Source: Gamarada debralockiae
Lineage: Eukaryota > Ascomycota > Leotiomycetes > Helotiales > Hyphodiscaceae
DNA length: 64,000 nucleotides
Direction: 5' to 3'
NCBI GenBank assembly: GCA_002803225.1
Contig: NXFV01002074.1
Location: 62,001-126,000, forward strand
The notes beneath the pieces are model-generated. The model had not been told where the DNA came from and ran no database searches. It saw only the letters and a list, made by a program, of their open reading frames with translations. The translations under genes were made by a program, and so were the position numbers. Of the stretch, positions 2,157 through 45,920 are shown in pieces. Within the stretch, counting starts at the first letter, position 1. The number at the start of each line of letters is the position of its first letter.

Positions 2157-4292
2157 CTACAGGGCGTTCAGAATGGCAGTATACGCAGCCTTTGGCCAGT
2201 AGTTGGCATCGAATAGAAGAGGAATGCTGCTTGCTTGCCAAGAACTTTGAATATTTCCGAGTCGGCAGTTGCTCGAAAAGGAAGAAAGAGTTAAGCGGGC
2301 TTTGTGATTTCTGGAGCATGCCTTTAAAGACACGTTCTTTGAGGCAGAATATGCTCTTTAAACTCACTAATTGGGAGAGAAGGGGAAATGGATTCCTCCG
2401 AGAAATACATACTCTGGATCGCGAACTCCCCAGACTGTTATTCCCACGCATTTCGCGACACCAAGGCAAGTGTTAACCACCTAGAAGATTCATGTCAGAA
2501 AGTTCGACCAACGTTGTCCTGTGGGAGACAAGAAGTTGATGGCGCCAATGTGGAGATGGTAAATACTTACGTTGGCATAATCACTTGCGGCAGCACCAAC
2601 GATATCAAGCTGGAGGGTTTAGAGTCAGCACATGGAGCCCCGGTAAGATTTGAGCAGCTCGGAGACACGAAGACTTTGATTGAGAAATGTCGACTTGCTC
2701 TATGCGGCGACTTCGGTGACATCAGTGGCAGCAAGAGTCACCTGGGCTCCAGCAGTACCTGTGCTTTGCCCAGCACTCACTGCAGAACATCGGGGAGTCA
2801 GCGTATTAATTCATGGGGAAGGATTTTGGAGTAAGCACTCCCGAGACATGATTCAAGAGTATAAACTTGTGAAACAGTCCCGCATAGGGAATATTTGCTC
2901 CCAGAAGACCTATAATGGCTTTGAGATCCAGTGCCGTCGATTGGAAGACCTGCTGCTTTCCACTTTGTTCACGTGTGCAACTATCCCGGTCGTACTTTTG
3001 CATATTTAGCCGAGTCCAGGCTGTGGCGCGAATTAGTCTCGGGCTCTTCTGATCCTTGCTATGGGTTCTTATAGTCGTTGATGTACAGCTTTGCATTTGG
3101 ATCAGCACCTCTGGCTACGGCGAAAGCGATCGAAACGAAGTTTTCGCCAAGAACAATATACCACATATCGCTTCTAATGGATCCGTCCTCATTAAAGATT
3201 TCGTTCACGACGTCCTGATAATATGTCAGTAACGAGGTAATGTGAGAAATGAAAACCCTTACCCAAGCATAGATCTTGCCCTTATAGCGACACATCTCAG
3301 TTGCGATGTGATTTTGGAGGACGGAAGTGAAGGTCGCTGCGCTCGAGATCGAACACACTTATCTTGGGAGCTGGGAGTACCAGCCTAAACACTTTCAGTG
3401 TTACTCTTGTATGGACAAAATCAGAGAACGTACACAAAGTGTGTCCGCGGATGAGCTTGCCATTAGTTTGCGCCCAGTTAACCTTTTGTATGTCAGTCCG
3501 AGCATATCGTGTTTCAGCGGGAAGTCCTACCAGGTAATCGGCTTGGGCGAAGTTGAAGTTATTTTGAGACGCTGTCATCTGATTTCAGTATGGGTACTTG
3601 CTAACGTCACATTCGAGGCCTCGAAATACCTTCTGTTGTGTCCCACTTCATGCTGTTCTCCGTGGTTACTTGCCCAAAGTCGGCTTGAAAGATGGTAGCA
3701 TGGCTGCCGACAGGAAGGCGGTCCTCGTTAGTTGCAACGCCGAAGTATTTCTTGCCATGAGCAACAAATTAAGTATTGGTACTAGTGCTTCCCCCAGTTT
3801 GGGTTCCAATCCCACCATTGCTGGAACTGCTAGTGCTTGCGGCTGACCTGGTGGTAGTTGTTGATGTTGACAGAGTTGTTGGGTTGCGCTAGATGTTGGT
3901 GCAGCGCTTGTCGTTTGTGCAGTTTGTTGTTGCACCGCTGGGCCCAGAACCTGGAAGACACTGAGAATACCCTTGAGGTCTAGGTTAGATTTGAAACTTT
4001 TTATCGACATTTTAGAGCTACAAGCACTGTGACCAGGTCAGTTTGGAGTTCTTACGTTATTCCTCGAGGGGATGCGGGAGTCTACTGGCTTTGAGTATGC
4101 ACAGTAGGTCCCTGCGACGCAAGTAGTTGCACCTGTCGAATACAATCCTTCACCTGAAGAAGGTCGTTTAATTCCGGTCGAACCATCCACCCGGAAAACA
4201 ACTACATTTCCCCATTCTGCACTCTGAGCAGAAGCAAAATCAACGTTGCTCAAGACCGCAGCCAGAGCCGCAAGGTACTTAATGTTTAGCAT
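2157..4292 (-). pseudogene. decayed secreted GH10 endo-1,4-beta-xylanase with CBM1 relic
   Basis: Reading the minus strand from ATG 4292: a signal peptide (MLNIKYLAALAAVLSNVDFA), a CBM1-like cellulose-binding module (STGATTCVAGTYCAYSKPVD) that has lost its outer cysteines, an S/T/Q-rich linker, then a GH10 catalytic domain broken over several frames. GH10 landmarks in order: [49 protein letters not shown] (normally WHSQLP), [25 protein letters not shown] with the acid/base Glu, [81 protein letters not shown], then a stop at 2157. Lesions: TAA right after WYSQLPR (about 3359-3361), TAG after TEVAA (2700-2702), frameshifts in the KLYINDY to WKAAG stretch, and Gln where the nucleophile Glu of TELDI is expected. 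Family members hydrolyse xylan outside the cell. This copy cannot make an active enzyme. Unannotated introns could explain some but not all of the breaks. Confidence 0.85.
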
Positions 4293-21398: not shown

Positions 21399-24300
21399 AG
21401 GGTGAATCTGTTGAAAGGTGACCTCGTGTTTGGTTTTTTTGGGAGATGACGTATCGCGGTCGAGACTGTTGTATGATTATTTCCTTCGCAGAAGGCTATT
21501 CTATTGAAAGGTAGAGTGGAGAGGTCGTGAGGAGGTTAGTCGAATCTAATCGCTTCCCTCTACAGTACAGAGATGGCCGTGAGGGCGATCTTGTGGTGTG
21601 GTTGTAAGGAGTGTTCGTCGCAGCGATCGTGTCGAAACGTGTGCGTGCGATGTATTAGGTCGATTACCGTACAGGATCGAGACTCGGCGAGATGTCTTCT
21701 ACAGAATAGAAGATCGCCGGAGTAAAGGGGTGTTTTTTGTTGGTCTTCCTTGATAGAGGGTATTAGGTGAAGGGTTAAGACGAAAAATTGTCTGGGGAGG
21801 TTTGGAAATGTCGCTTAGCGCCAATTTGCACCACGCACTTTTTTTTGGGCGGAGGCGGATTCACCAGCAGCAACAAAATCACTTTCCATGGAAGGGACTC
21901 AGGCTCAAATGACTGTGCACAAGGCAAGGGCAGGGGGTCAAATCCGAAGGAAGGCCATTATTCGGATAGGAAGAAAATCCCCGAGATAAACTATCAGTTC
22001 CAAAATAAAATGGACTGTTGGTAGAAGTTTGCCAATCGTCACTGTTTTCTATGGGAGCAAGTCTTTCTTTTTCTATTACTAAAATCTCCTGATATGCTGA
22101 ATCTGGAAGGGTTGAGGCGAGATATCTCATGTTGTCTTGAGCAAAATCTGCAAAATTCTCTGCCAAATTTATTTTTTCTTATTGTCAGATCCTTGAAGCT
22201 TTCTTTTACAGTTCATGTTATTGCACGAATCGTGTTAGCATTGTACAGAACAAAGAAGCAGTTTGACAAGAAGGTAAAAATCAAAGGTTGCTAGAAAGAG
22301 CTGATTTCAAACGCGCTACCGTAGCACGGGGCGCGCCCCCTTGCCCCTTGTTTCCGAGATGGGCTGGACTTTGTATTTCTATCTCCGTCCCCATCCTGCA
22401 CGGTCAACCTCGAGAGGGACTCTTCCTTTCTCGCAGAAGGCAAACAGAAAAAATACCTCTACAGTTCTCATCCAACGTTGTTGGAAGAATCAATCCCTAG
22501 ACTACCTGTACTCATCATCAGTGCTATCTCCCGCCAAGGTGAACCAAGCCCGTACTCTGAATCACTCTCCAGAATGAGCCTCTTGTCTTAGATACTTTTC
22601 TGGGTTTGTGGCAGAAACGACGCTTCGATGCCCAATGCGCCTTCGAAGAAGCCTCAAAAGAAAGAGCCTCGAAGTCGAACAGCGCTGACGACATGTCGAC
22701 CAACTACGTATCTAGAACAATGTTATCAGTAATGACTGGTTGGAGCAATGCGTGAATCACGTTGAGATTCATCCAAGCTTACCAACAGGTCGTCCTGTGC
22801 CCCTCAAAGTACAGATCCAGCCGTTGCACTAAAATTCTTACCCAACCACTGCTTTTGCCCCCATAGAGGCGATTCAAACCCACCAATCCCTCGATTTCCA
22901 CCCCCTAAACCCCCATCCACTGAAAACACCAACATTTCAAACCATCAAGACTCATCGCACGGTCAGATCCGGCCAAAAGTGGCCCAGTATATTGACACAA
23001 ACGCTCTGACTCATTCTGACTGGGAATTCGCCTTACGTGCATGTTGAGATGCACCATCACCCAAAGAAAGAAGGTCAGCATGCGGCGCAAATGCGCCCCG
23101 ATAGTAGATACGATTGTCGATTCTAAATACAGGCTATATTCCCTGCAGCGTGACGACAGCACGATCCGATTTGATTCTGCACTACCATCAGGCGACGATG
23201 CGCTGAGCTGTGGGAAGGATTTAGTTTCCTGCAAGTATCCGTGAACATCATATCATACAATCATATATCTCGTATAATTACTACGAATTTTAAACATCCC
23301 TTTTCATATCATGCCCGTCATTTCCTTTTCAGCCTTTCAGGGCTGGAATGGGGATGTTCTGGAAGCCGACGCCGCCTTAGAAGCCCCGGCAAGCGAGTGA
23401 CTTGCATGTGATCGGCTATCGTGCAGCGTCAAGGGAGTTTAAGATTAATTGGGATACAAGATAACTATTGTTCAAATCAACGGGTATTTCAGCTATTAGA
23501 ATGATATGAGAGGTCTCGCAGGAAATCGCGAGTTTTGATCGTTGACTCTCATGAAGCATTTGAAGTCAAGAGTATCGAGGACAACTTGCGGCTATATGAA
23601 TATCCTCGTAAGAACGAATACGATCTTAATATCCAATTACTGTGGTTTATATAGAGATTCATTTATGTGAGAGCCTTGATCATCTTCAGTATTTTCATTG
23701 TATAACCATCCCCTACGTTAGCATGTTCTTCTCTCGATTGCTCATTACTACGTTCTCTCTTCAGGACAACCCCTTTTATGAGTTGTTGAGTCAACGCTTT
23801 CAAGCGAATTACGATTCCTCTCAAACTGGAAAAGAAAGGTGCCACTCAGTAGATCCCTATAGCCAGCTGTCCCAGTCGTTCAAACTATTTAAGCGATTGA
23901 GTTTCCCAGAATCGGGGTTTTCAGAGGCTTGCCTTGGAGTTTAAATTGTTCAAATGATTGGAACGATGACTCTTTCGAACCCCCATTTCATAGTTGAAGT
24001 GAGTTCGAGGGATTATCGCGTCATCGTACCATTCCAGATAATTTTTATAACAGGAATTTCCTCGAGCCCTGAGTAAAGTCTTTCTTAGTAAGGAAAGAAT
24101 TAATGGGTTCGAACCCTACCATTACACATTATGAGCGCCAGAACCAAATTAATCTCGATATTTCCCCGTGGGTGACATTTTCCCTCACCCAATTTCTAGC
24201 GAGACCCTAGATTTCAAATTTTGAACATATACCTTTCATTCTTCAATCATAAATATCAAAACCCTCCAAGTTGCCAAAATATCATGGAAACAAGTCTAGA

Positions 24301-25418
24301 GAAAGGGCGAGGAGCTGGCCCCGCGCACCAGCAGTGAGGGGGAGGTCGCCATCACCCGAACCCGTGTGAGCTGCCGGGTATATTTTGAATTAAACGGAGC
24401 TCGTTGGGTACAGAGGGTTCATAAAATATAACTTCTAGCCCAGTATGCCATATGTGAGTGTATGGGGATCGTCCAAAGGGGTCCGGTATTGTCACGTCAT
24501 ATAAACCAAAGTTTCGTAGCAGGAACTTCGCGCACTATATATTTTAAATCCTCCATTCCCCGTGAAGTCTACTAGCCACCTCCACCTCCCAGTCACGAAA
24601 GCCCAACCTCTTAACTTCAAACCAACCAATAGATTACTCGCTCTGCCTCCCGAGCTCCGCCTGATAGTATAAAAGCTTTATCTCAGCAATCCCTTCCCCA
24701 TCACCATCAGGTAGATGCGGCCGAATGTTTACTGCCCGACTGCGTGGTTCCACTGCCAAGTCGTAAGCCCTGGTTCCTTTTTGCATGGTTCAGATACTTT
24801 GGACGATTCAGATTCCAGATAATTCACTAGAACCTCAATCGCTCAAAAGGTGTGAATGATTCAAAAACCGGGCGTTGGGGAGCGAATGTACGTTCTCAGA
24901 GATCAAGACATGCACGCTTAGCCCAAGGGAAGTTCAGTCCAAGCCCACCACACTTGATGGGGGATAAACTAGAGAAAATAGGACCAAACACTTGCATATT
25001 TCACAACTTTAGCTTTCGAATGAGTGCATAGTATAATATTACCAGCATCATATATACAATGCGAAATCTCATCCTCAGTCTCAGCGCCATAATCATGATT
25101 GATGACCAACGCCTATATTATTCCGATCAGCCCTCCCCACGAGGAGCAATGCCATGAAACCATCTCAACGCTAATGCAACAAATAAAATGGCCGTCGACT
25201 CTGCATACTCCCTTCCTCTTCTATCTCTCTCTATCTCAAGGAGTTTGGGAACCTTCTCTCCTCCGCTCATGCCCCAAAAAGATAACCCAGACGCTAAACA
25301 GCATCATGAAAATGCTAAGGACGGCTAGTCACACGACCGTGCAGCTGGAGCTCTGACACCTGCACGCGATATTCAGCAGTCATCCTCAAGCATTCTTCAC
25401 ATTTTGTTCCGCTGGGTT
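21399..25418. other. long gene-poor region
   Basis: Four kilobases between divergently placed eIF4G and the 3' end of the RING-LON gene. The first 600 bases are the eIF4G promoter and 5' leader side. Short frames (22094-22577, 22905-23234, 23642-23944, 25099-25356) show no family features. Copies of the dispersed hairpin motif lie near 23880 and at 24835-24864. I found no transposase, reverse transcriptase or tRNA. Confidence 0.5.
24835..24864. repeat. intergenic copy of the AATCGCTCA/TGAATGATT hairpin
   Basis: TCAATCGCTCA and TGAATGATTCAA flank a 7-base spacer. The arms match those of the hairpins in introns at 29-31 kb. It lies between genes, not in a recognised intron. Confidence 0.6.
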
Positions 25419-28932: not shown

Positions 28933-31153
28933 TCAAGAATCGACGGTATTCGATTTTTTAACCTTCGTAGCTTTCGTCTTATCTTTCTTTGCATCCTTTG
29001 CAGCGTTTACGGCGTCCTTTGCTACCTTCTTTCCAGCGGTCTCGGCCAGCCGCTCGTCAATCTTTGATTGTCTTTCACTGATTGCAAGAAGTTGGCTAGT
29101 CAAAGCGCGGTAACCTCTGAGCTCCTTAGCCGTCATTCCGCTGTAATTGTCACGAAGGTTCCAAGCTTCCACGACCGCTTCCTGCGAGCAGCTGTTAGCA
29201 ATCGCTCTCCTTTATTGAGCGATTGGGCCCGGGCGGATTTCGGCAGTAGAACTCATGAAACTGGGCCAGTAATCGCCCGAATGTGGTGAGAGAATGAAAT
29301 ACGTACCTTGCCATAAGCCTGTGAATTCTTCTGATAGAAGGTTACGATCGCATGTCTGCACCAGAGGGCATTCAACACGGAAACATCTTCCCATGATGTT
29401 TCTGGCGGGAGATCGCTTCGTTGCCAGGCATGCATGCCAGTGAGAGAGGCAATCTTGGCGTGGAACTCAACACTAGCAGGGAATCCATCAGGCTCGGATC
29501 TTCGGGAAGCCAATATCTCATCAACCTGCCAGGCTAGATCGCCATCCGCATCGTACTTTGGAATGACTCTCTTAGGGATTGTTCCATCGTCTGTAAAGGA
29601 TTCGAGCTTGCGCAGTTGGTGGCGTGTGCGACTCGCAACGATACAAGGTTTCCTGTGCAAATCTCGAAGTCAGTAATCGCTCAATAGAGGTGAAGGATTA
29701 GAGCTAAGTCGATTTCACGCGCTTCAAACTCAAAGACGCCCTTCAAAGGGCTGGATTCCGGAGTAGCTTCATGAGACCGCCAGAATATGGAGAAAGTTGC
29801 CGTTAAATACTTACTTATCTTCACCAAGGCGGCCGTCACCGTGTATGTCGAGTGTCGCTTCTCGCTGAGCGATGAGCAAGGTCTTTAGGCTGTATGGTGA
29901 AGTTCCTCGAGGGTCCTTCATCCGCTCCCGCAGAACAGGCTCCAACTTCGCAACGAACAATTGACAACGGTCCTGCCAGCCTATTCCACTGCAGGAGCCA
30001 CAGACCTTGAGTCTCAAGGCCTGCAGACCCTCCATAGCGATCAAGGCATCTTTATACCCTGATATCTTAGACTCTTCTCCCTGGAAGAAACCGGGGTAGG
30101 GTTCTCCATCGAAGAAGGTGTAGCCGTAGGGGATGTGGAAGTCGGAGTGGAACAGGAGAGTAAGTTCCTGGAGACCGTCACTGCAGAAAAAGGCAGTCAG
30201 CAATTGTTCATTAGATTTGGAAGATTCTTAGTGACTGCTTTTGGGGCATTTTGCTCGACGATTTGCAATCGCCCATTAGATTTGAAGGATTCAGGATTCA
30301 TGCTTTCGAGACGTTGTGATCGCCCCCTCGCAATCACTGATTCTATGTGAAAGATTGCGGAACTTACCATGTTGCCAGAACCGTGAAAAGCTTGGAAGCT
30401 TCTTTAGGTATACCACTCCAATCACAAATGATGGATCGAATAGCCTTCATTCGGGGCGAGGTGAGTGCAACAAGATAGTTGATTGTGCCAGCAGCGCGAT
30501 TGACCCGCCAACCCGGTGCGCATGTGAACGCGAAACGATTGACTTTGTAGAAAAGGTGAGTGAGGGCGACTTCCTCGTACAATGTGCGGCAGACTCTGGA
30601 TAACTGAACCGCGGTCAAGGTAGGGGCATCATTGACGGTCTTTTTACGAGTACCGTCCGACTTAATCTGAGCTCTGGACCAAATGAACTTGTTGGACCGC
30701 TCTCGAAGTTGGACTGGCTCGATCGGTTCGTCGACGGTAATGACCAAGATCCACTGGACGATCGAGTCAGTTATTGCTGCAGCGGGGTAGAAGGAAAGCA
30801 CTTACGATCTTCTGCTTAATCTCAACTGGAAGCTTGAGCAATGCGCTTTCGGCGTTGCCCTAGAAGGAGATAAATAATCATTCAGACAAATTCAGCGATT
30901 GATTTGCGCACCTGGACGATGACCTTGCCCGTCAAGTTGGATGCTTCCTCGGTGTTCTAGAATACGTGTCAGTTTGAATTGCTCGAAGGTGATGAGCGAT
31001 TCAAATACCTGGGCTGCAGCGGTCGTGTTGTCAATTTCGGCACTCTGAAATCCATATCAGCTTCAATCGTTCAGGGGAGATGAACAATTCAAATACCTTG
31101 GGGGCGGGAGCGCGCTTCTTGCTGGCCTTTCCAGACTTGGATTTCCTCGTCAT
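28933..31153 (-). CDS. fungal F-box-like (2EXR/DUF7730-type) protein with eight exons
   Basis: Exons on the minus strand: 31153-31097, 31044-31009, 30956-30912, 30859-30806, 30753-30368, 30180-29815, 29652-29307, 29181-28933; 512 residues, every junction in frame. After a basic leader (MTRKSKSGKASKKRAPAPK), the segment ALLKLPVEIKQKIWILVI matches the LPxEIrxxIw core of the F-box-like 2EXR/DUF7730 families. It is followed by LSRVCRTLYEEVALTHLFYK, the usual 'record of earlier parts' helix of these proteins. The end is a lysine-rich helix (AAKDAKKDKTKATKVKK). Function is unknown; such proteins form large, fast-evolving fungal families. The first four introns are each exactly 52 nt and three carry a shared hairpin. 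Introns 5-7 (187, 162 and 125 nt) also hold copies. The tiny exons of 36, 45 and 54 nt between them suggest recent intron gain. Confidence 0.8.
29182..29306 (-). repeat. introner-like intron 7 of the F-box-like gene
   Basis: 125 nt. It holds a perfect 9-base inverted repeat (CAATCGCTC at 29199-29207, GAGCGATTG at 29217-29225). On the minus strand the right arm is followed at once by the branch site GCTAACAG. It also shares CATGAGTTCTACT with CACGAGTTCTACT in the Aquarius intron. Confidence 0.7.
29653..29814 (-). repeat. introner-like intron 6, homologous to Aquarius intron 5
   Basis: 162 nt. Its 3' half on the minus strand, CTTAGCTCTAATCCTTCACC then TTGAGCGATTACTGACTTCG and TTTGCACAG, is nearly the same as the end of the 166 nt intron at 43481-43646 in the Aquarius gene. 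The middle parts (GAAGGGCGTCTTTGAG against GAGGGCATTTTTGGAG) also align. Confidence 0.8.
30181..30367 (-). repeat. intron 5 of the F-box-like gene with two tandem motif copies
   Basis: 187 nt. On the minus strand, CTTCAAATCTAATGGGCGAT (about 30261-30295 on plus) and CTTCCAAATCTAATGAACAA (about 30195-30230) are two copies of the same element. The second runs into the branch site TTGCTGACTG. Confidence 0.6.
30860..30911 (-). repeat. diverged introner-like intron 3 of the F-box-like gene
   Basis: 52 nt. The arms AATCGCTGA and TCTGAATGATT are present but more diverged, and the donor is GTGCGC. The length is identical to introns 1, 2 and 4. Confidence 0.55.
30957..31008 (-). repeat. introner-like intron 2 of the F-box-like gene
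   Basis: 52 nt. On the minus strand it begins GTATTTGAATCGCTCATC, then GAGCAATTCAAACTGACA, and ends TTCTAG. It aligns without gaps to intron 1 over its length, with the same hairpin and branch-site position. The flanking exons are not related. Confidence 0.75.
31045..31096 (-). repeat. introner-like intron 1 of the F-box-like gene
   Basis: 52 nt. On the minus strand it begins GTATTTGAATTGTTCATC, then GAACGATTGAAGCTGATA, and ends TTTCAG. The two arms pair, so nearly the whole intron folds into one hairpin, with the branch-like CTGAT right after the right arm. Near-identical in plan to intron 2. Confidence 0.75.
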
Positions 31154-40959: not shown

Positions 40960-43900
40960 ATGGCCCCGAGAAAGAAGGCAAAGGAAGAGCCTCCCCGGGA
41001 GGTGGATGATGGAAGACCAACTATGGCCGACCTAGATGGCGAAAATCCGTTTGCGCAGCTTGCCCAGAAGCATTGGTTGAAGACGAAAAAGTCTGCGAAA
41101 ATCAAGGTCAAGCCGGAGGTGTTGAAGAATGAAATATGGGATGTTTTGGAGCGGGAGGACTTTGCGTTTAAGTCTCTGCTTGTGTTGGAGAACTTGCAGA
41201 TATTGGAGAGGTACGGTCATAATCTGTTACCGCATTAATTGGGGTATAAGATGCCAATCGTTCAACCTATCCCAGCGACTGAGGACAGACAATTTGGACA
41301 GCTACAAGCTACCCTGGATGGCTAGGAGTTGAATAAGTCGATTGAAGGGCCAAGGATCCAGCGGGCTATGGGAAGCTCAGTCGAATTCCTTTTCATTGAA
41401 CTTCACTGAGCGATTGATATCTTGCACCCCAATTAATGCAGTACCGTATGGCGCATGGCTAACTGTTCTGATAGTTACCTATGGCCAGGCTATTCCGAGG
41501 ACTCGTCCAACTTCCACGTCTTATTGATTGTCTTGATCACGAATGTTAGGACTCGGGAACATCTCCCAACATGGGGTAAGCAATGTCGAGTGCATACGAG
41601 GGATTGCACTGACTTTGAACAGATTTGTTTACGGACAATCCTACCGAATTCTCCTCTCTGTTTCGACGAATACTTTCGATGACATTGGATGCTACGCTAT
41701 CGCCCACCGTCAGAACCCACCTCCTCTCGTTCGTCATCAGTGCCTTCCAATCATTGGATAGCGGGATAGTCAGGAAGGAATGCGCTCCATTAGTTTCGAT
41801 ATCCATCTGGCACAATTTATCGAGCGAAAAGAAGCGGGAACGGAAGCTTGATCAGAGCGTACAATTACGAAAGGCTTGGAGAGCTGCAGCAAAACGCTAC
41901 GAGGCGGCTGACGATGCAACAAAGCCTCGACTCCGATTCGAGCGTTCGTGGCTATTTACGTTGATTCTTGACTTCTTCAATCAGCTCTATGGCGAGAAGA
42001 GCAAGCCAGGTGTGTTTCATGCATATACAAGAGACTTAGTAAATACTGACCCCAATAACAGAAAATGTGCACTACTGCGAACGGTTCCTTGAATTTCTAT
42101 CGGACCTACAAAGCCAGTTGCCAACCCGGAGATATGTCAATACCCTTCTTCAAGATCTGCACACACTTCCAGCTATCCGATTGTCTCCGGCCTTTAACGA
42201 CGAAGACAATGGCCTGATACGAGATCTTTATGCTTTACTCAAGCACTACACCTACTTCTCAATCGACGATCATACTGGTATCCAACATAGCCGTACTGAG
42301 GCATACGAACGTCACTGTGCTACACTTGCATCTTTGCAGCGGGTTGCTCTCAAGCACTTCAAGGAGAAGCTGACGATTTTGGCATTGTCAAACTATGCGT
42401 CTATTGATAAACGAACGGAACTTGAGGGCCATCTCGAGGCTCTTACAGATGCTGAAGTTGTTGAGCTGTGTGACCTCCTCCACTTCCGAACATCTTTTCC
42501 TACATCCACAAAAATTGTCGCAGATCGTCAATTCCTGATTGAAGTTCTGCTGTCCAGTCACGAGAAGCGCAAGACCTTCCAGGAGACAGCGCGTGACCTG
42601 AGTATTTTACCTACGGAGCTTACACTTTTTGAGCCGATGTTGTTGAGAAACGATAACTACAATGGCTCACAACCTTTGGCGTTACCTAAACTCAATCTCC
42701 AATACCTCACAGTGGGCGACTTTCTTTGGAGATCCTTTATTCTGCACCGTTGCGAATCATTTTACGAGATTAGGAAAGAGATGGAGGATACCATCAAACG
42801 CCTACGACCAAGTATGGGCCGGAATGGCCAGACCAGCTTTGGAGGATTCTCAAAGATGGCCTTGCCAATCACGAAACCAGCGTAAGTCTCATAAAAATAG
42901 CTTTTTACAGCGTGCTAACAGTATCACAGAATTTTGGAATCACTTCCACCACTCGTTGGTGACGATAAGCCTGCAGTTGTGCGAGCTGAAATCGCACTCG
43001 ATGTTAGCCGTCTGGCAGACAACATTCGACGAGAATGGGAGTCGCTTCGACCAGATGATGTGGTCTTCTTACTCGCTGTCCAAGCTCCCGATGACTCCAA
43101 AATGATTACGAATGGTGGATCAATCCTTTCTGATGCCCAGAAAGTAGGACTGAAATACCTGCGAGCAGCCGAGATCACCCAAGTGCTGGACGATAATGGA
43201 CGCCCGCTGAGGGACCACAACGGTCAAACGAATGGACATGGTCGACCGCGGACGCGCAGATTGCAAGTCAAACTCGACGCCACTATGTTCAAAGAAGATA
43301 TGGCTCGAGTAAACAGCGGTAAACCGAACATTTACGAGAGCATGAACATTATTGTTCGTAGAAGAGGTAGGGAGAACAACTTCAAGCCGATTCTTGAATC
43401 GATTCGAAGTCTGACCTTGTCTGATATACCTCTCGCTCCATGGCTTCACGAGGTATTTCTTGGTTATGGTGATCCTGCAGGTATGTAATTCTCAAGGCAG
43501 TTGTCGCAGAATTGCGGCTAGATCCACGAGTTCTACTCCTGGCATTGACCCTATAGAGGGCATTTTTGGAGCCTGTAACTCATGGATCCCGCTTAGCTCT
43601 AATCTTCATCTCATTTGAGCGATTACTGACTCCGAAATCTTCACAGGAGCTACCTACACCCATTTATCCAATCAACTCACGCAAGTGGATTACAGAGACA
43701 CCTTCCTCGACTGGCAACATCTGATTGAAAGTTTACCCGGCAAGACCATTGAGCCAAGTGATGATGTAAACGGCAGCTTCGGGCCACCGTATGTTCTCCA
43801 GACCGTGCCGAAGCCTGGCGAAGCTGCCCCAGCAAAGCCTTCAAAGAAGCGACGACGGGATGCAGAACCTACGCCTCAAGTACAGCCGGAAGCCATTCAA

Positions 43901-45891
43901 GTCTCTACTTATAAGCCCCCCAGCACAGGCCCGTATCCAATGGATGCTCCCAAGCTTAACAACGTCCGGTTCACACCAGCACAAGTTGATGCAATCGTTT
44001 CCGGAACGCATCCTGGATTGACGGTCATCGTTGGGCCACCAGGCACCGGAAAGACTGATGTTGCCACTCAGATTATCAACAACATATATCACAACTTTCC
44101 TAAACAGCGTACTCTTCTCATTGCGCATAGTAACCAAGCCCTAAATCAACTATTCCAAAAGATTGTTGCGTTGGATATTGATGAACGCCACCTTCTTCGA
44201 CTGGGCCATGGCGAAGAAGAACTGGACACAGAAGCTAATTTTAGCAAACACGGGAGGGTAGAGTCCTTCCTCGAGAACCGGGATGGTTATCTCATGGAAG
44301 TTAACCGACTCGCTGCCAGCCTTGGTGCCCCAGGTGCCCATGGTACCTCTGCAGAGACTGCAGGCTATTTCAATTCTGTCTACATCGAACCTGCGTGGAT
44401 GAGATTCCAGGAAGCTGCTAACGATCCAGACGCTACTGTCGAGGCCATTCTCGAAGCTTTCCCATTCCATGACTACTTCTCTAACACTCCCCACCCGCTC
44501 TTCCCACCCGATGCAGATAAGGATGCCATCCTTGATATAGCCAATGGCTGCTATCACCATGTCTCAAAAATCTTCACCGAGCTGGCAGACGTCCGGCCCT
44601 TTGAGATCCTTCGCCGAGATCGCGATAAAGCCAACTACCTCCTCACGAATGAAGCCAGGATCATCGCCATGACGTCCACGCACGCAGCTATGAGAAGGCG
44701 GGAAATAGCATCACTTGGCTTCCATTACGACAACGTTATCATGGAGGAAGCGGCGCAGATCACTGAGATCGAGAATTTCATTCCTCTCGCTCTACAGAAC
44801 CCCAAGGATGGAGAAATGCCGTTGCAGCGAGTCGTTCTCTGCGGAGATCACTACCAAAACTCCCCTGTCATCCAAAACCTTGCTTTCCGTCAGTATGCCA
44901 ACCTGGAACAATCACTTTTCTCCCGCCTGGTCCGACTCGGCGTTCCAACCATCAATCTCGACCAACAAGGTCGTGCTCGCCCTTCGATTGCGGCCCTGTA
45001 TTCATGGCGCTACAACAACCTTGGTAATTTACCTCTCGTATCCTCTTTGCCTGAGTTCCAGACGGCCAATGCTGGTTTCAAGTATGACTACCAGTTCATC
45101 CAAGTGCCCGATTATAAGGGCAAAGGAGAATCAGAGCCTACTCCACATTTCATCCAGAATCTAGGCGAAGCAGAGTACGCAGTTGCCATCTTCCAGTACA
45201 TGCGTCTGCTCGGGTATCCAGCCTCGAAAATCAGCATTCTGGCGACATACGCTGGTCAGCGGGCCTTGATCAAGGATGTTCTCAACCATAGATGCGCCAA
45301 GAATGCTCTATTTGGTCTCCCAAAAATTGTCACTACGGTCGACAAATACCAGGGTGAGCAGAATGATTGTAAGTCTGTCCATCTCGCTATTAATAAGCCA
45401 CGTACTAAAAGCTCTCAGACGTAATCCTTTCTCTCACCCGCACGTCCCGCGTTGGCTACCTGCGAGATATCCGCCGTCTGACAGTCGCACTCTCCCGAGC
45501 ACGGTTAGGACTCTACATTCTCGGCCGTCGTGAAGTCTTCGAATCCTGTTTCGAGCTTCGCCAAGCCTTCGATATCCTTTTACAGAGACCTGACAAGTTG
45601 ATGCTAGTGACTGGAGAGTTATTCCCGAGCAACAGAGTTCTGAAGGATGAGGAAGGTGCGGATATTCCTGGGGAGACGCAGATGGAGAATGTGGAGCATC
45701 TAGGACAATATGTGTATGAGATGACGAACTCGAAAGTGCAACAGCTCAGAGCAGAGAGGGGCTTGGCAGCCGCTGAGCTTGTTGCGCCTGTAGTGGGGGA
45801 GGAGGATGTGGAGTTAGGTTATACCCAGGGAGAGGAGGAATATTTCGAGGAGGAGATTGAGGAGGGGTTGGAGGCTGAGGCTGAGGAATAA
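40960..45891 (+). CDS. AQR: intron-binding spliceosomal RNA helicase Aquarius (Cwf11)
   Basis: Seven exons, 40960-41210, 41475-41575, 41623-42009, 42062-42881, 42930-43480, 43647-45368 and 45419-45891, give 1434 residues with every junction in frame. Aquarius binds the intron upstream of the branch site and helps couple splicing to exon-junction-complex and snoRNP assembly. The N-terminal helical part is recognisable (LLVLENLQILESYLWPGYSE, HVLLIVLITNVRTREHLPTW). The UPF1-like helicase core has the P-loop GPPGTGKT near residue 832, a DEAA-type box read as EEAAQITEIENFIPLAL near 1069, GDHYQNSPVI, DQQGRARPSIAALYSWRY, VDKYQGEQNDYVILSL and TVALSRARLGLYI. The tail is strongly acidic. The ATG at 40960 (MAPRKKAKEE) is the first in frame. 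Introns 1 (264 nt) and 5 (166 nt) are much longer than the others; intron 5 is an introner-like element. Confidence 0.97.
43481..43646 (+). repeat. introner-like intron 5 of Aquarius
   Basis: 166 nt, GTATGT..CAG. The last 55 bases (CTTAGCTCTAATCTTCATCT, TTGAGCGATTACTGACTCCG, ATCTTCACAG) match the intron at 29653-29814 of the unrelated F-box-like gene almost base for base. Homology continues more weakly toward the 5' side. Confidence 0.8.
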
Positions 45892-45895
45892 CAGT

Positions 45896-45920
45896 AATCG
45901 CTCACCGAGGTTGAACGATT
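45896..45920. repeat. hairpin copy directly after the Aquarius stop codon
   Basis: AATCGCTCA, spacer CCGAGGT, TGAACGATT: arms of 9 bases with one mismatch, four bases past the stop codon. The same arms occur in the introner-like introns. It lies in the 3' untranslated region and could affect 3' end formation, or be an intron-derived remnant. Confidence 0.6.

What the first reader, a model, noticed from the sequence alone, without database searches (positions are those of the whole stretch)
29182..31096. One gene carries several related introns that look like introner-like elements
Seen: introns 1 and 2 (both 52 nt) align end to end and fold into one hairpin from the donor to the branch site; intron 3 (52 nt) is a diverged version; introns 5, 6 and 7 contain the same TGARCGATT-type right arm, placed directly before the branch site (GATTACTGAC, GATTGCTAAC, AATTGCTGAC). 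The exons between introns 1-4 are tiny (36-54 nt) and unrelated. Established: introner-like elements, which are multiplying spliceosomal introns with stable stems, are described from several fungi. Inference: this genome has such a family, with the hairpin bringing donor and branch point together.
Basis: partly seen in the sequence, partly recalled or inferred. Interest (0 to 1): 0.88.

Follow-up and report, generated by a model that had tools for sequence, protein, structure and literature searches.

The report
Fungal introners built around dispersed palindromes
A fungal gene carries introns from an old genome-wide family of copied introns, and its smallest introns hold a short DNA palindrome that is scattered over a thousand times through the genome, often away from intron ends, which may hint at what new introns were made from.

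Summary
The gene model holds: minus strand, 8 exons, 7 introns, a DUF7730 protein. Introns 1 and 2 are alike beyond chance and each folds into a hairpin; intron 3 is neither alike beyond chance nor folded. This genome (54.3 Mb, unnamed; a filamentous ascomycete by inference) has a real introner-like family: introns, mostly 120-175 nt, with a shared donor region and a fixed 3' module (palindrome, branch site, CAG). Introns 6 and 7 belong to it, intron 5 weakly; introns 1-3 are not clearly above an ordinary intron. I estimate roughly 500 copies, all diverged (mean identity 60%, best 74%). The surprise is the 'hairpin': AATCGYTCA-N7-TGARCGATT is a 9-7-9 palindrome found 1,317 times genome-wide (4 in the reversed-pattern control), spacer nearly always 7 nt but variable in sequence. 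In the DNA I could read, 78 of 121 are not beside a branch site, and it is depleted from called coding sequence. Its arms mutate independently, and the introner consensus hairpin carries a mismatch, so it behaves like a DNA motif or mini-element rather than a selected RNA stem. 'Introner family' is supported; 'a hairpin that brings donor and branch point together' is not. Recent gain could not be tested: no relatives or RNA-seq.

The parts
28933..31153 (-). Host gene: 8 exons (31097-31153, 31009-31044, 30912-30956, 30806-30859, 30368-30753, 29815-30180, 29307-29652, 28933-29181), DUF7730 / 2EXR-like protein of 512 aa, no paralogue found in the genome
31045..31096 (-). Intron 1, 52 nt, minimal palindrome intron (GTA + extended palindrome + CTGAT + CAG)
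30957..31008 (-). Intron 2, 52 nt, related to intron 1
30860..30911 (-). Intron 3, 52 nt, holds a 9-7-9 palindrome (2 mismatches) but is not alike introns 1 and 2 beyond chance and does not fold
30754..30805 (-). Intron 4, 52 nt, ordinary intron without the palindrome (internal control)
30181..30367 (-). Intron 5, 187 nt, three palindromes exactly 65 nt apart, the last directly before the branch site; weak introner-family match (z 6.8)
29653..29814 (-). Intron 6, 162 nt, clear member of the introner-like family (z 42.7; model R2 E 6e-28, but it is one of the 13 sequences the model was built from)
29182..29306 (-). Intron 7, 125 nt, shortened member of the family (z 16; only fragments found by model R2, E 0.1)
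43481..43646 (+). Full-length introner-family intron, 166 nt, between coding stretches of an Aquarius (intron-binding protein) gene
2246..2412 (-). Diverged introner-family copy with a degenerate branch site and acceptor (R2 E 3e-9)
31065..31089 (.). 9-7-9 palindrome in intron 1
30977..31001 (.). 9-7-9 palindrome in intron 2
30876..30900 (.). 9-7-9 palindrome in intron 3
30202..30356 (.). three 9-7-9 palindromes in intron 5 (30202, 30267, 30332)
29675..29699 (.). 9-7-9 palindrome in intron 6, directly before the branch site
29200..29224 (.). 9-7-9 palindrome in intron 7, directly before the branch site
45896..45920 (.). perfect palindrome outside the gene of the finding, 4 nt after a TAA triplet that ends an open acidic-coding stretch (read by eye)
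23874..24861 (.). cluster of four palindromes (23874, 23944, 24784, 24837) outside called coding sequence

Best explanation
Two layers are mixed in this gene. (1) An old, diverged introner-like family: spliceosomal introns, in the 13 near-full-length copies 122-175 nt, that share a donor region (GTAWGTAATTCTC..AGCA), a middle part (CATGAGTTCTACTCC...GGAGTTTGAACTCATG) and a fixed 3' module (AATCTTTCA CCTCTAT TGAGCGATT R CTRAC ... TTTTCACAG). Introns 6 and 7 are members and intron 5 a remnant. I infer that they spread by copying of the whole intron into new exon sites, then decayed; the shared sequence is shown, the spreading, its orientation and the lack of a target-site duplication are not proven. 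(2) Beneath it lies a dispersed DNA palindrome, AATCGYTCA-N7-TGARCGATT, with 9-bp arms and a nearly fixed 7-bp spacer of variable sequence, found more than a thousand times and depleted from called coding sequence. The introner 3' module is one lineage of this palindrome fixed one base upstream of a branch site. Introns 1-3 are minimal introns of 52 nt, each holding one palindrome; introns 1 and 2 are probably duplicates of each other. The palindrome is conserved as two independent DNA half-sites, not as an RNA stem, so I take the hairpin in introns 1 and 2 to be a by-product. Most likely role: a mobile or protein-bound DNA module that can supply the branch-proximal part of new introns (inferred).
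For: Family: 55 exact and 142 looser 3' modules genome-wide against 0 and 1 in reversed controls; 13 copies align GT to CAG, mean pairwise identity 0.60, best 0.74; 27 of 27 tested introns (24 family introns plus introns 1-3) leave an open junction when spliced, 3 of 27 when retained; random splices are open in 79%. Membership of introns. Palindrome: 1,317 places at up to 2 mismatches against 4 in the control; with spacers of 2-25 allowed, 46 exact places, of which 40 have spacer 7, three 6, one 5, two 8, control 0; in a 200-kb sample 12 of 76 half-sites have their partner at spacer 7 against 0.2 expected; 109 different spacers among 121 palindromes. Not an RNA stem. Depleted from called coding sequence: 15 of 114 against 68 expected, with a loose coding call.
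Against: Introns 1 and 2 do fold (z -1.9, -3.2), and three of eight family introns folded have z -1.4 to -2.0. The family's sense strand has U-G rather than C-A at arm position 6 in 29 of 43 branch-site copies against 3, which an RNA stem would also give, though common descent explains it. 92 of 99 palindromes outside called coding sequence have called coding sequence on both sides within 300 bp in all, so many could lie in introns away from the branch site; the coding call is loose. No splicing data and no relatives, so gain is inferred only from similarity. No near-identical copies, so active multiplication is not shown. No clear target-site duplication or other sign of movement of the palindrome itself. 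Among the 40 perfect palindromes spacers are slightly more alike than column-permuted ones (33 near-identical pairs against 19, 1 of 300 permutations as high; exact repeats 3 against 1.5, not significant), so the spacer is not fully free there; no such excess in 78 copies of the held DNA.
Confidence: 0.64

Rival explanations
1. One reading: one family of introner-like elements in which a selected RNA hairpin brings donor and branch point together; introns 1, 2, 3, 5, 6 and 7 are all members.
For: Introns 1 and 2 fold from near the donor to the branch site with z -1.9 and -3.2; three of eight family introns fold with z -1.4 to -2.0; palindrome placed one base before the branch site in many introns.
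Against: No both-sided changes in 38 copies; 77.5% of cells paired against 77.9% in shuffles; the pair of columns 7 and 23 is unpaired in 32 of 38. No consensus structure in 13 copies. Intron 3 and five of the eight family introns folded are no better than shuffles. 78 of 121 palindromes are not beside a branch site. Introns 1-3 do not match the family clearly above the control intron 4.
Confidence: 0.13
2. The palindrome is a binding site of a dimeric DNA-binding protein (chromatin, transcription or recombination) kept by selection; introns carry it only because introns are non-coding, and the introner ancestor happened to contain one site.
For: Nearly fixed 7-bp spacer with variable sequence, independent half-sites, conserved 9-bp arms, everted pairs also 7 bp apart (44 places against 1 in the control), depletion from called coding sequence.
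Against: No such protein or site is known to me; over a thousand long sites is many for a regulator; the preferred position one base before branch sites needs the extra assumption of common descent.
Confidence: 0.27
3. The palindrome is itself a mobile mini-element of 25-33 bp (REP- or MITE-like) and introns 1-3 arose by its insertion into the first exon, flanking bases supplying splice sites.
For: Over a thousand dispersed copies, clusters at 50-79 and 31-33 bp, slight excess of like spacers among perfect copies, one pair of neighbours on contig C127 with spacers one base apart.
Against: No clear target-site duplication and no strongly conserved flank; fresh copies of a mobile element should share a spacer, but 109 different spacers stand among 121 palindromes.
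Confidence: 0.21
4. Chance or assembly artefact.
For: None found beyond the single-gene view.
Against: Controls.
Confidence: 0.01

Closest known systems
Introner-like elements (ILEs) of Capnodiales / Dothideomycetes (van der Burgt 2012, recalled; Collemare 2015, PMC4457414, parts 1 and 2 of 4 read plus a term search)
   Same: Spliceosomal introns, related in sequence, in many genes, decaying to ordinary introns; genes with more than one copy
   Different: Copies here are at best 74% identical end to end, not near-identical; the 3' module is a palindrome that also occurs over a thousand times in the genome, often away from branch sites; no common secondary structure over the copies tested
Symmetrical sister stwintrons and cropped sister introns of Hypoxylaceae (Fekete 2021, PMC8469720, passages read)
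   Same: Proliferating short introns with internal symmetry; a small palindrome inside the intron
   Different: Symmetry there is a 45-55-nt terminal inverted repeat with a 10-nt palindrome TTTCTAGAAA; here a 9-7-9 palindrome that lies next to the branch site and is dispersed genome-wide
Introners from DNA transposons (Gozashti 2022, PMC9860276, part 1 of 7 plus passages read)
   Same: Similarity runs between both splice boundaries; the paper calls ascomycetes an outlier with fewer TSD/TIR signatures
   Different: No TIR or TSD seen here (by eye); the dispersed palindrome is not the intron's end
Dispersed palindromic repeats of organelle or bacterial genomes (LIMP of Lobosphaera mitochondria, PMC4524435, passages read; bacterial REP, recalled)
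   Same: Short dispersed palindromes with a 7-nt centre in non-coding DNA
   Different: LIMP has an invariant loop and repeat-unit arms in 19 copies; here the arms are fixed, the spacer varies, and there are over a thousand nuclear copies

Membership tests
Introner-like elements (fungal ILEs) | Spliceosomal introns with sequence similarity from donor to acceptor in unrelated genes | tested here: met
   13 copies aligned GT to CAG out of 24 delimited, in different loci; that the genes are unrelated was not checked gene by gene; splicing inferred from reading frames
Introner-like elements (fungal ILEs) | Many copies per genome (hundreds) | tested here: met
   142 matches of a 15-nt signature, control 1; about 500 by two rough extrapolations
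Introner-like elements (fungal ILEs) | Near-identical copies (recent multiplication) | tested here: not met
   Best end-to-end pair 74%, mean 60% over 13 copies; best local match 79% over 142 nt; of the 31-nt 3' module one exact copy and five with one mismatch. PMC4457414 says Dothistroma ILEs have much lower identity too
Introner-like elements (fungal ILEs) | Stable or symmetrical secondary structure | tested here: not met
   RNAalifold on 13 copies: 0 pairs; eight family introns folded (one cut short), z from -2.0 to +0.9; no covariation in the 3' hairpin
Introner-like elements (fungal ILEs) | New intron positions relative to related species | not testable with these tools
   No fungal relatives are held; the protein search was off
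Introner-like elements (fungal ILEs): introns 1-3 as members of this genome's family | Similarity to the family clearly above an ordinary intron of the same gene | tested here: not met
   z 2.8, 4.4 and 1.2 against 4.1 for intron 4
DNA-transposon-type introners | Target-site duplications or terminal inverted repeats | tested here: inconclusive
   No obvious TSD at 24 family introns by eye, no statistical test; around 121 palindromes no clear TSD-like signal: best of 930 column pairs z 3.8, best diagonal z 2.8
Symmetrical sister introns / stwintrons | 45-55-nt terminal inverted repeats, nested donor | tested here: not met
   Introns 1 and 2 are 52 nt in all with arms of 9-13 bp; nested splice sites were not searched for

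The most novel reading that the evidence does not exclude
A nuclear 9-7-9 palindrome (conserved half-sites, nearly fixed 7-bp spacer of variable sequence, the core-site geometry of site-specific recombinases such as lambda integrase; geometry recalled) is a mobile or recombinase-linked DNA module that has seeded both non-coding arrays and new spliceosomal introns: placed next to a branch site it became the 3' module of an introner family, and in its minimal form it makes 52-nt introns like introns 1-3.
Probability: 0.2. Interest if true: 0.88.

Novelty: new variant of a known kind. Interest (0 to 1): 0.62.

Why it matters
How new introns arise is an open question. Introner families in fungi are, as far as I know, described as whole introns of unexplained ancestry. 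Here one family shares its branch-proximal module with a repeat that exists over a thousand times in the genome, often away from branch sites, which gives a testable source for introner sequence. The fixed spacer length and independent arms of the palindrome also point to a protein that recognises it, which could be sought by a simple pull-down. Even if the link is only common descent, the palindrome is a striking repeat of which my paper searches listed no description.

Tried and rejected
RNA stem selected for splicing: rejected as the main explanation for lack of compensation. Local duplication of exon plus intron as the source of introns 1-3: not supported, the exon pairs tested are not alike; intron-only duplication of introns 1 and 2 remains likely. 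Known RNA family: none in the window at gathering scores. General enrichment of hairpins in this DNA: none (450 found, 432 in one Markov control), so the motif is specific. Transposon ends facing each other with a 7-bp TSD: not supported, little conserved sequence beyond about 6 bp outside the arms. Recombinase integration with equal spacers at both ends: most neighbouring exact palindromes on one contig have different spacers, except a pair on C127 that differs at one base. Viral origin: exact AATCGTTCA-N7-TGAACGATT and an exact introner 3' module are absent from viral contigs. 36 stretches, one site each, in the 257 Gb of prokaryote contigs, which I read as chance (no shuffled control, loci not looked at). 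Sequence words in print: no paper held contains any of six 12-14-nt words.

Limits: the 200-kb sample (L033-L052) comes from contigs chosen because they held a hit, and one region (L035) includes such a hit. Loci L003-L032 were chosen by TGAGCGATTRCTRAC, so right arms and branch sites there are biased. Of 40 3' ends listed the alignment used 38 (L016 and L027 left out for poor left arms), and one further match had no nearby AG. The alignment used 13 of 24 delimited introns; L006, L018, L022, L026, L027 and six short ones were left out. 'Beside a branch site' is a pattern test. The coding call is loose (59% of bases). A second rough test: 64 of 119 palindromes lie outside ORFs of 100 codons or more, which cover 66% of bases, and 33 lie in ORF-free gaps of 500 bp or more, but one of these is the known intron 7, so this does not separate intergenic DNA from introns cleanly. 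For the 24 untargeted family hits I dropped four loci that overlap others. One search printed nothing through a parsing slip and was repeated.

Confidence in the best explanation lowered from 0.66 to 0.64, and that of the mobile-element rival raised from 0.20 to 0.21, for the spacer result.
Full report
Gene and introns. The finding lies in a minus-strand gene with ATG at 31153 and stop at 28933-28935. Its eight exons join to 1539 nt with a single stop at the end, 512 aa, with a DUF7730 match (E 1.7e-7) and a sub-threshold 2EXR match. No other gene of this kind was found in the genome (four matches, all this gene's exons). Introns 1-4 are each 52 nt; introns 5-7 are 187, 162 and 125 nt.

Introns 1 and 2 agree at 37 of 52 positions; outside palindrome arms and splice signals they agree at 16 of 25 (P 0.00015), so they are probably copies of each other and do not merely share a motif. 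They fold as described (z -1.9 and -3.2), but introns 3 and 4 do not (z +0.8 and +1.3). Intron 3 agrees with them no better than chance; what it shares is a palindrome.

A genome-wide introner-like family. TGAGCGATTRCTRAC occurs 55 times in the genome (control 0) and TGARCRATTRCTRAC 142 times (control 1). The fetched loci show most of these to be intron 3' ends with consensus AATCTTTCACCTCTATTGAGCGATTRCTRACTCCGAAATTTTCACAG, several alike over 100-170 nt at 64-79% identity. I delimited 24 introns (67-277 nt); 13 were aligned from GT to CAG, mean pairwise identity 0.60, best 0.74. All 27 introns tested (these 24 plus introns 1-3) leave an open junction when spliced; 3 of 27 stay open when retained; 79% of random splices are open, so this alone is modest support. 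Intron 6 (z 42.7) and intron 7 (z 16) of the finding are members and intron 5 is weakly so (z 6.8); introns 1-3 (2.8, 4.4, 1.2) are not clearly above intron 4 (4.1). A sequence model of the family finds two untargeted copies at E below 0.01 (L039, and L041 whose 3' end lacks a clear branch site) in the 200-kb sample, plus one at window 2246-2412. By contrast, 24 untargeted copies or fragments lie in about 78 kb around targeted copies: copies are strongly clustered, as in this gene. Two rough extrapolations (2 per 200 kb; 87 looser-only matches divided by 5 of 27) both give about 500 copies. The 31-nt module has one exact copy and five with one mismatch out of 46 at up to three, control 0. The family is therefore old and decayed, with no sign of a recent burst.

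The palindrome. The 'hairpin' is AATCGYTCA-N7-TGARCGATT. Genome-wide there are 1,317 places at up to two mismatches, control 4. With any spacer from 2 to 25 allowed, 46 exact AATCGTTCA/TGAACGATT pairs exist, 40 of them with spacer 7, control 0. Longer arms (TTGAATCGYTCA) give 85 places at up to two mismatches, control 0. In the 200-kb sample, 12 of 76 half-sites have their partner at spacer 7 against 0.2 expected, other offsets 0 to 3. In all held DNA (342 kb) 129 palindromes at up to four mismatches stand against 3 in reversed sequence. Of 121 distinct palindromes at up to three mismatches, 43 are followed by a branch-site-like word and acceptor and 78 are not. They avoid called coding sequence, 15 of 114 against 68 expected, with a loose coding call; but 92 of the 99 others have called coding sequence on both sides within 300 bp in all, so I cannot say what share lies in introns, UTRs or intergenic DNA. 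Thirty-three of 119 lie in ORF-free gaps of 500 bp or more, a rough test that also catches the known intron 7.

What kind of thing it is. Spacers are nearly all different (109 different ones among 121) and carry 0 to 0.23 bits per position in the 78 non-branch-site copies against 0.75 to 1.64 for arms. Arms were selected for similarity and spacers were not, so the contrast is partly built in; the fixed length of the spacer is not. Among the 40 perfect copies spacers are somewhat more alike than column permutations allow (33 pairs within one mismatch against 19, 1 of 300 as high), which hints at some copying; among the 78 there is no such excess (22 against 25). Changes in the arms are independent: no excess complementarity at any of nine positions, and fewer complementary pairs than expected at position 6 (46 against 62). 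In the introner 3' module no pair changes on both sides, and pairing equals that of shuffles. There is no clear TSD-like signal around the palindrome (best of 930 column pairs z 3.8, best diagonal z 2.8). Neighbouring palindromes are often 50-79 bp apart (22 of 96 gaps), and five of 96 are 31-33 bp apart, which places the next half-site again 6-8 bp away. The everted pair with spacer 7 occurs 44 times genome-wide, control 1. I have no explanation for this 16-bp pitch other than a protein with matching geometry.

Position relative to branch sites. For TGAACGATT followed by CTGAC within 0-20 nt (55 places, control 8), match lengths give a gap of one base in 18 places and of four or five in 8. 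Introns 1 and 2 have a gap of four. A pattern of palindrome plus NNNRCTRAC (88 places at up to 3 mismatches, control 0) includes 11 outside this gene with an exact RCTRAC by my count; their donors could not be read, so a second, minimal class of introns elsewhere is possible but not shown. An exact search for GTATTTGAATYGYTCA-N{3,14}-TGARCRATT finds intron 1 only.

Reading. The palindrome is a separate, wider phenomenon; introns 1-3 show it in minimal form and introns 5-7 in introner form. I do not think the stem is kept for splicing. Whether the palindrome moves, or is bound by a protein, is open. Papers: PMC4457414 (parts 1 and 2 of 4, term search), PMC8469720 (passages), PMC9860276 (part 1 of 7, passages), PMC4524435 (passages); searches listed no description of such a nuclear palindrome or of these sequence words (titles and starts of abstracts seen).

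Noticed in passing
window 42067-45424 (+), intron 43481-43646: A family intron sits between coding stretches with Aquarius domains, that is in the gene of a spliceosomal intron-binding protein.
   Followed up: partly
L006:2449-2537, L022:1303-1390, L007:2049-2106: Palindromes stacked head to tail with 6-8 nt between them, so half-sites alternate at about 16-bp steps; genome-wide 44 everted pairs with spacer 7.
   Followed up: partly
window 30202, 30267, 30332: Three palindromes in intron 5 exactly 65 nt apart although the sequence between them looks unrelated.
   Followed up: no
L048:2953-3601: Cluster of six palindromes, one of them with spacer 6, in about 650 bp; of the five scored, four lie outside called coding sequence.
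   Followed up: no
L010, L019, L023, L028, L032: Three-kb loci with three or more introner-family matches or fragments each: introners are strongly clustered.
   Followed up: partly
window 2246-2412 (-): Family copy with CCGAC at the branch site and AAAG in place of the acceptor: a decaying or no longer spliced introner.
   Followed up: no
window 45896-45920: A perfect palindrome begins 4 nt after a TAA triplet, possibly in a 3' UTR.
   Followed up: no
40 perfect palindromes listed: Some spacers recur (AAAGATT three times) and near-identical spacers are more frequent than in permutations, a hint of copying with the spacer.
   Followed up: partly
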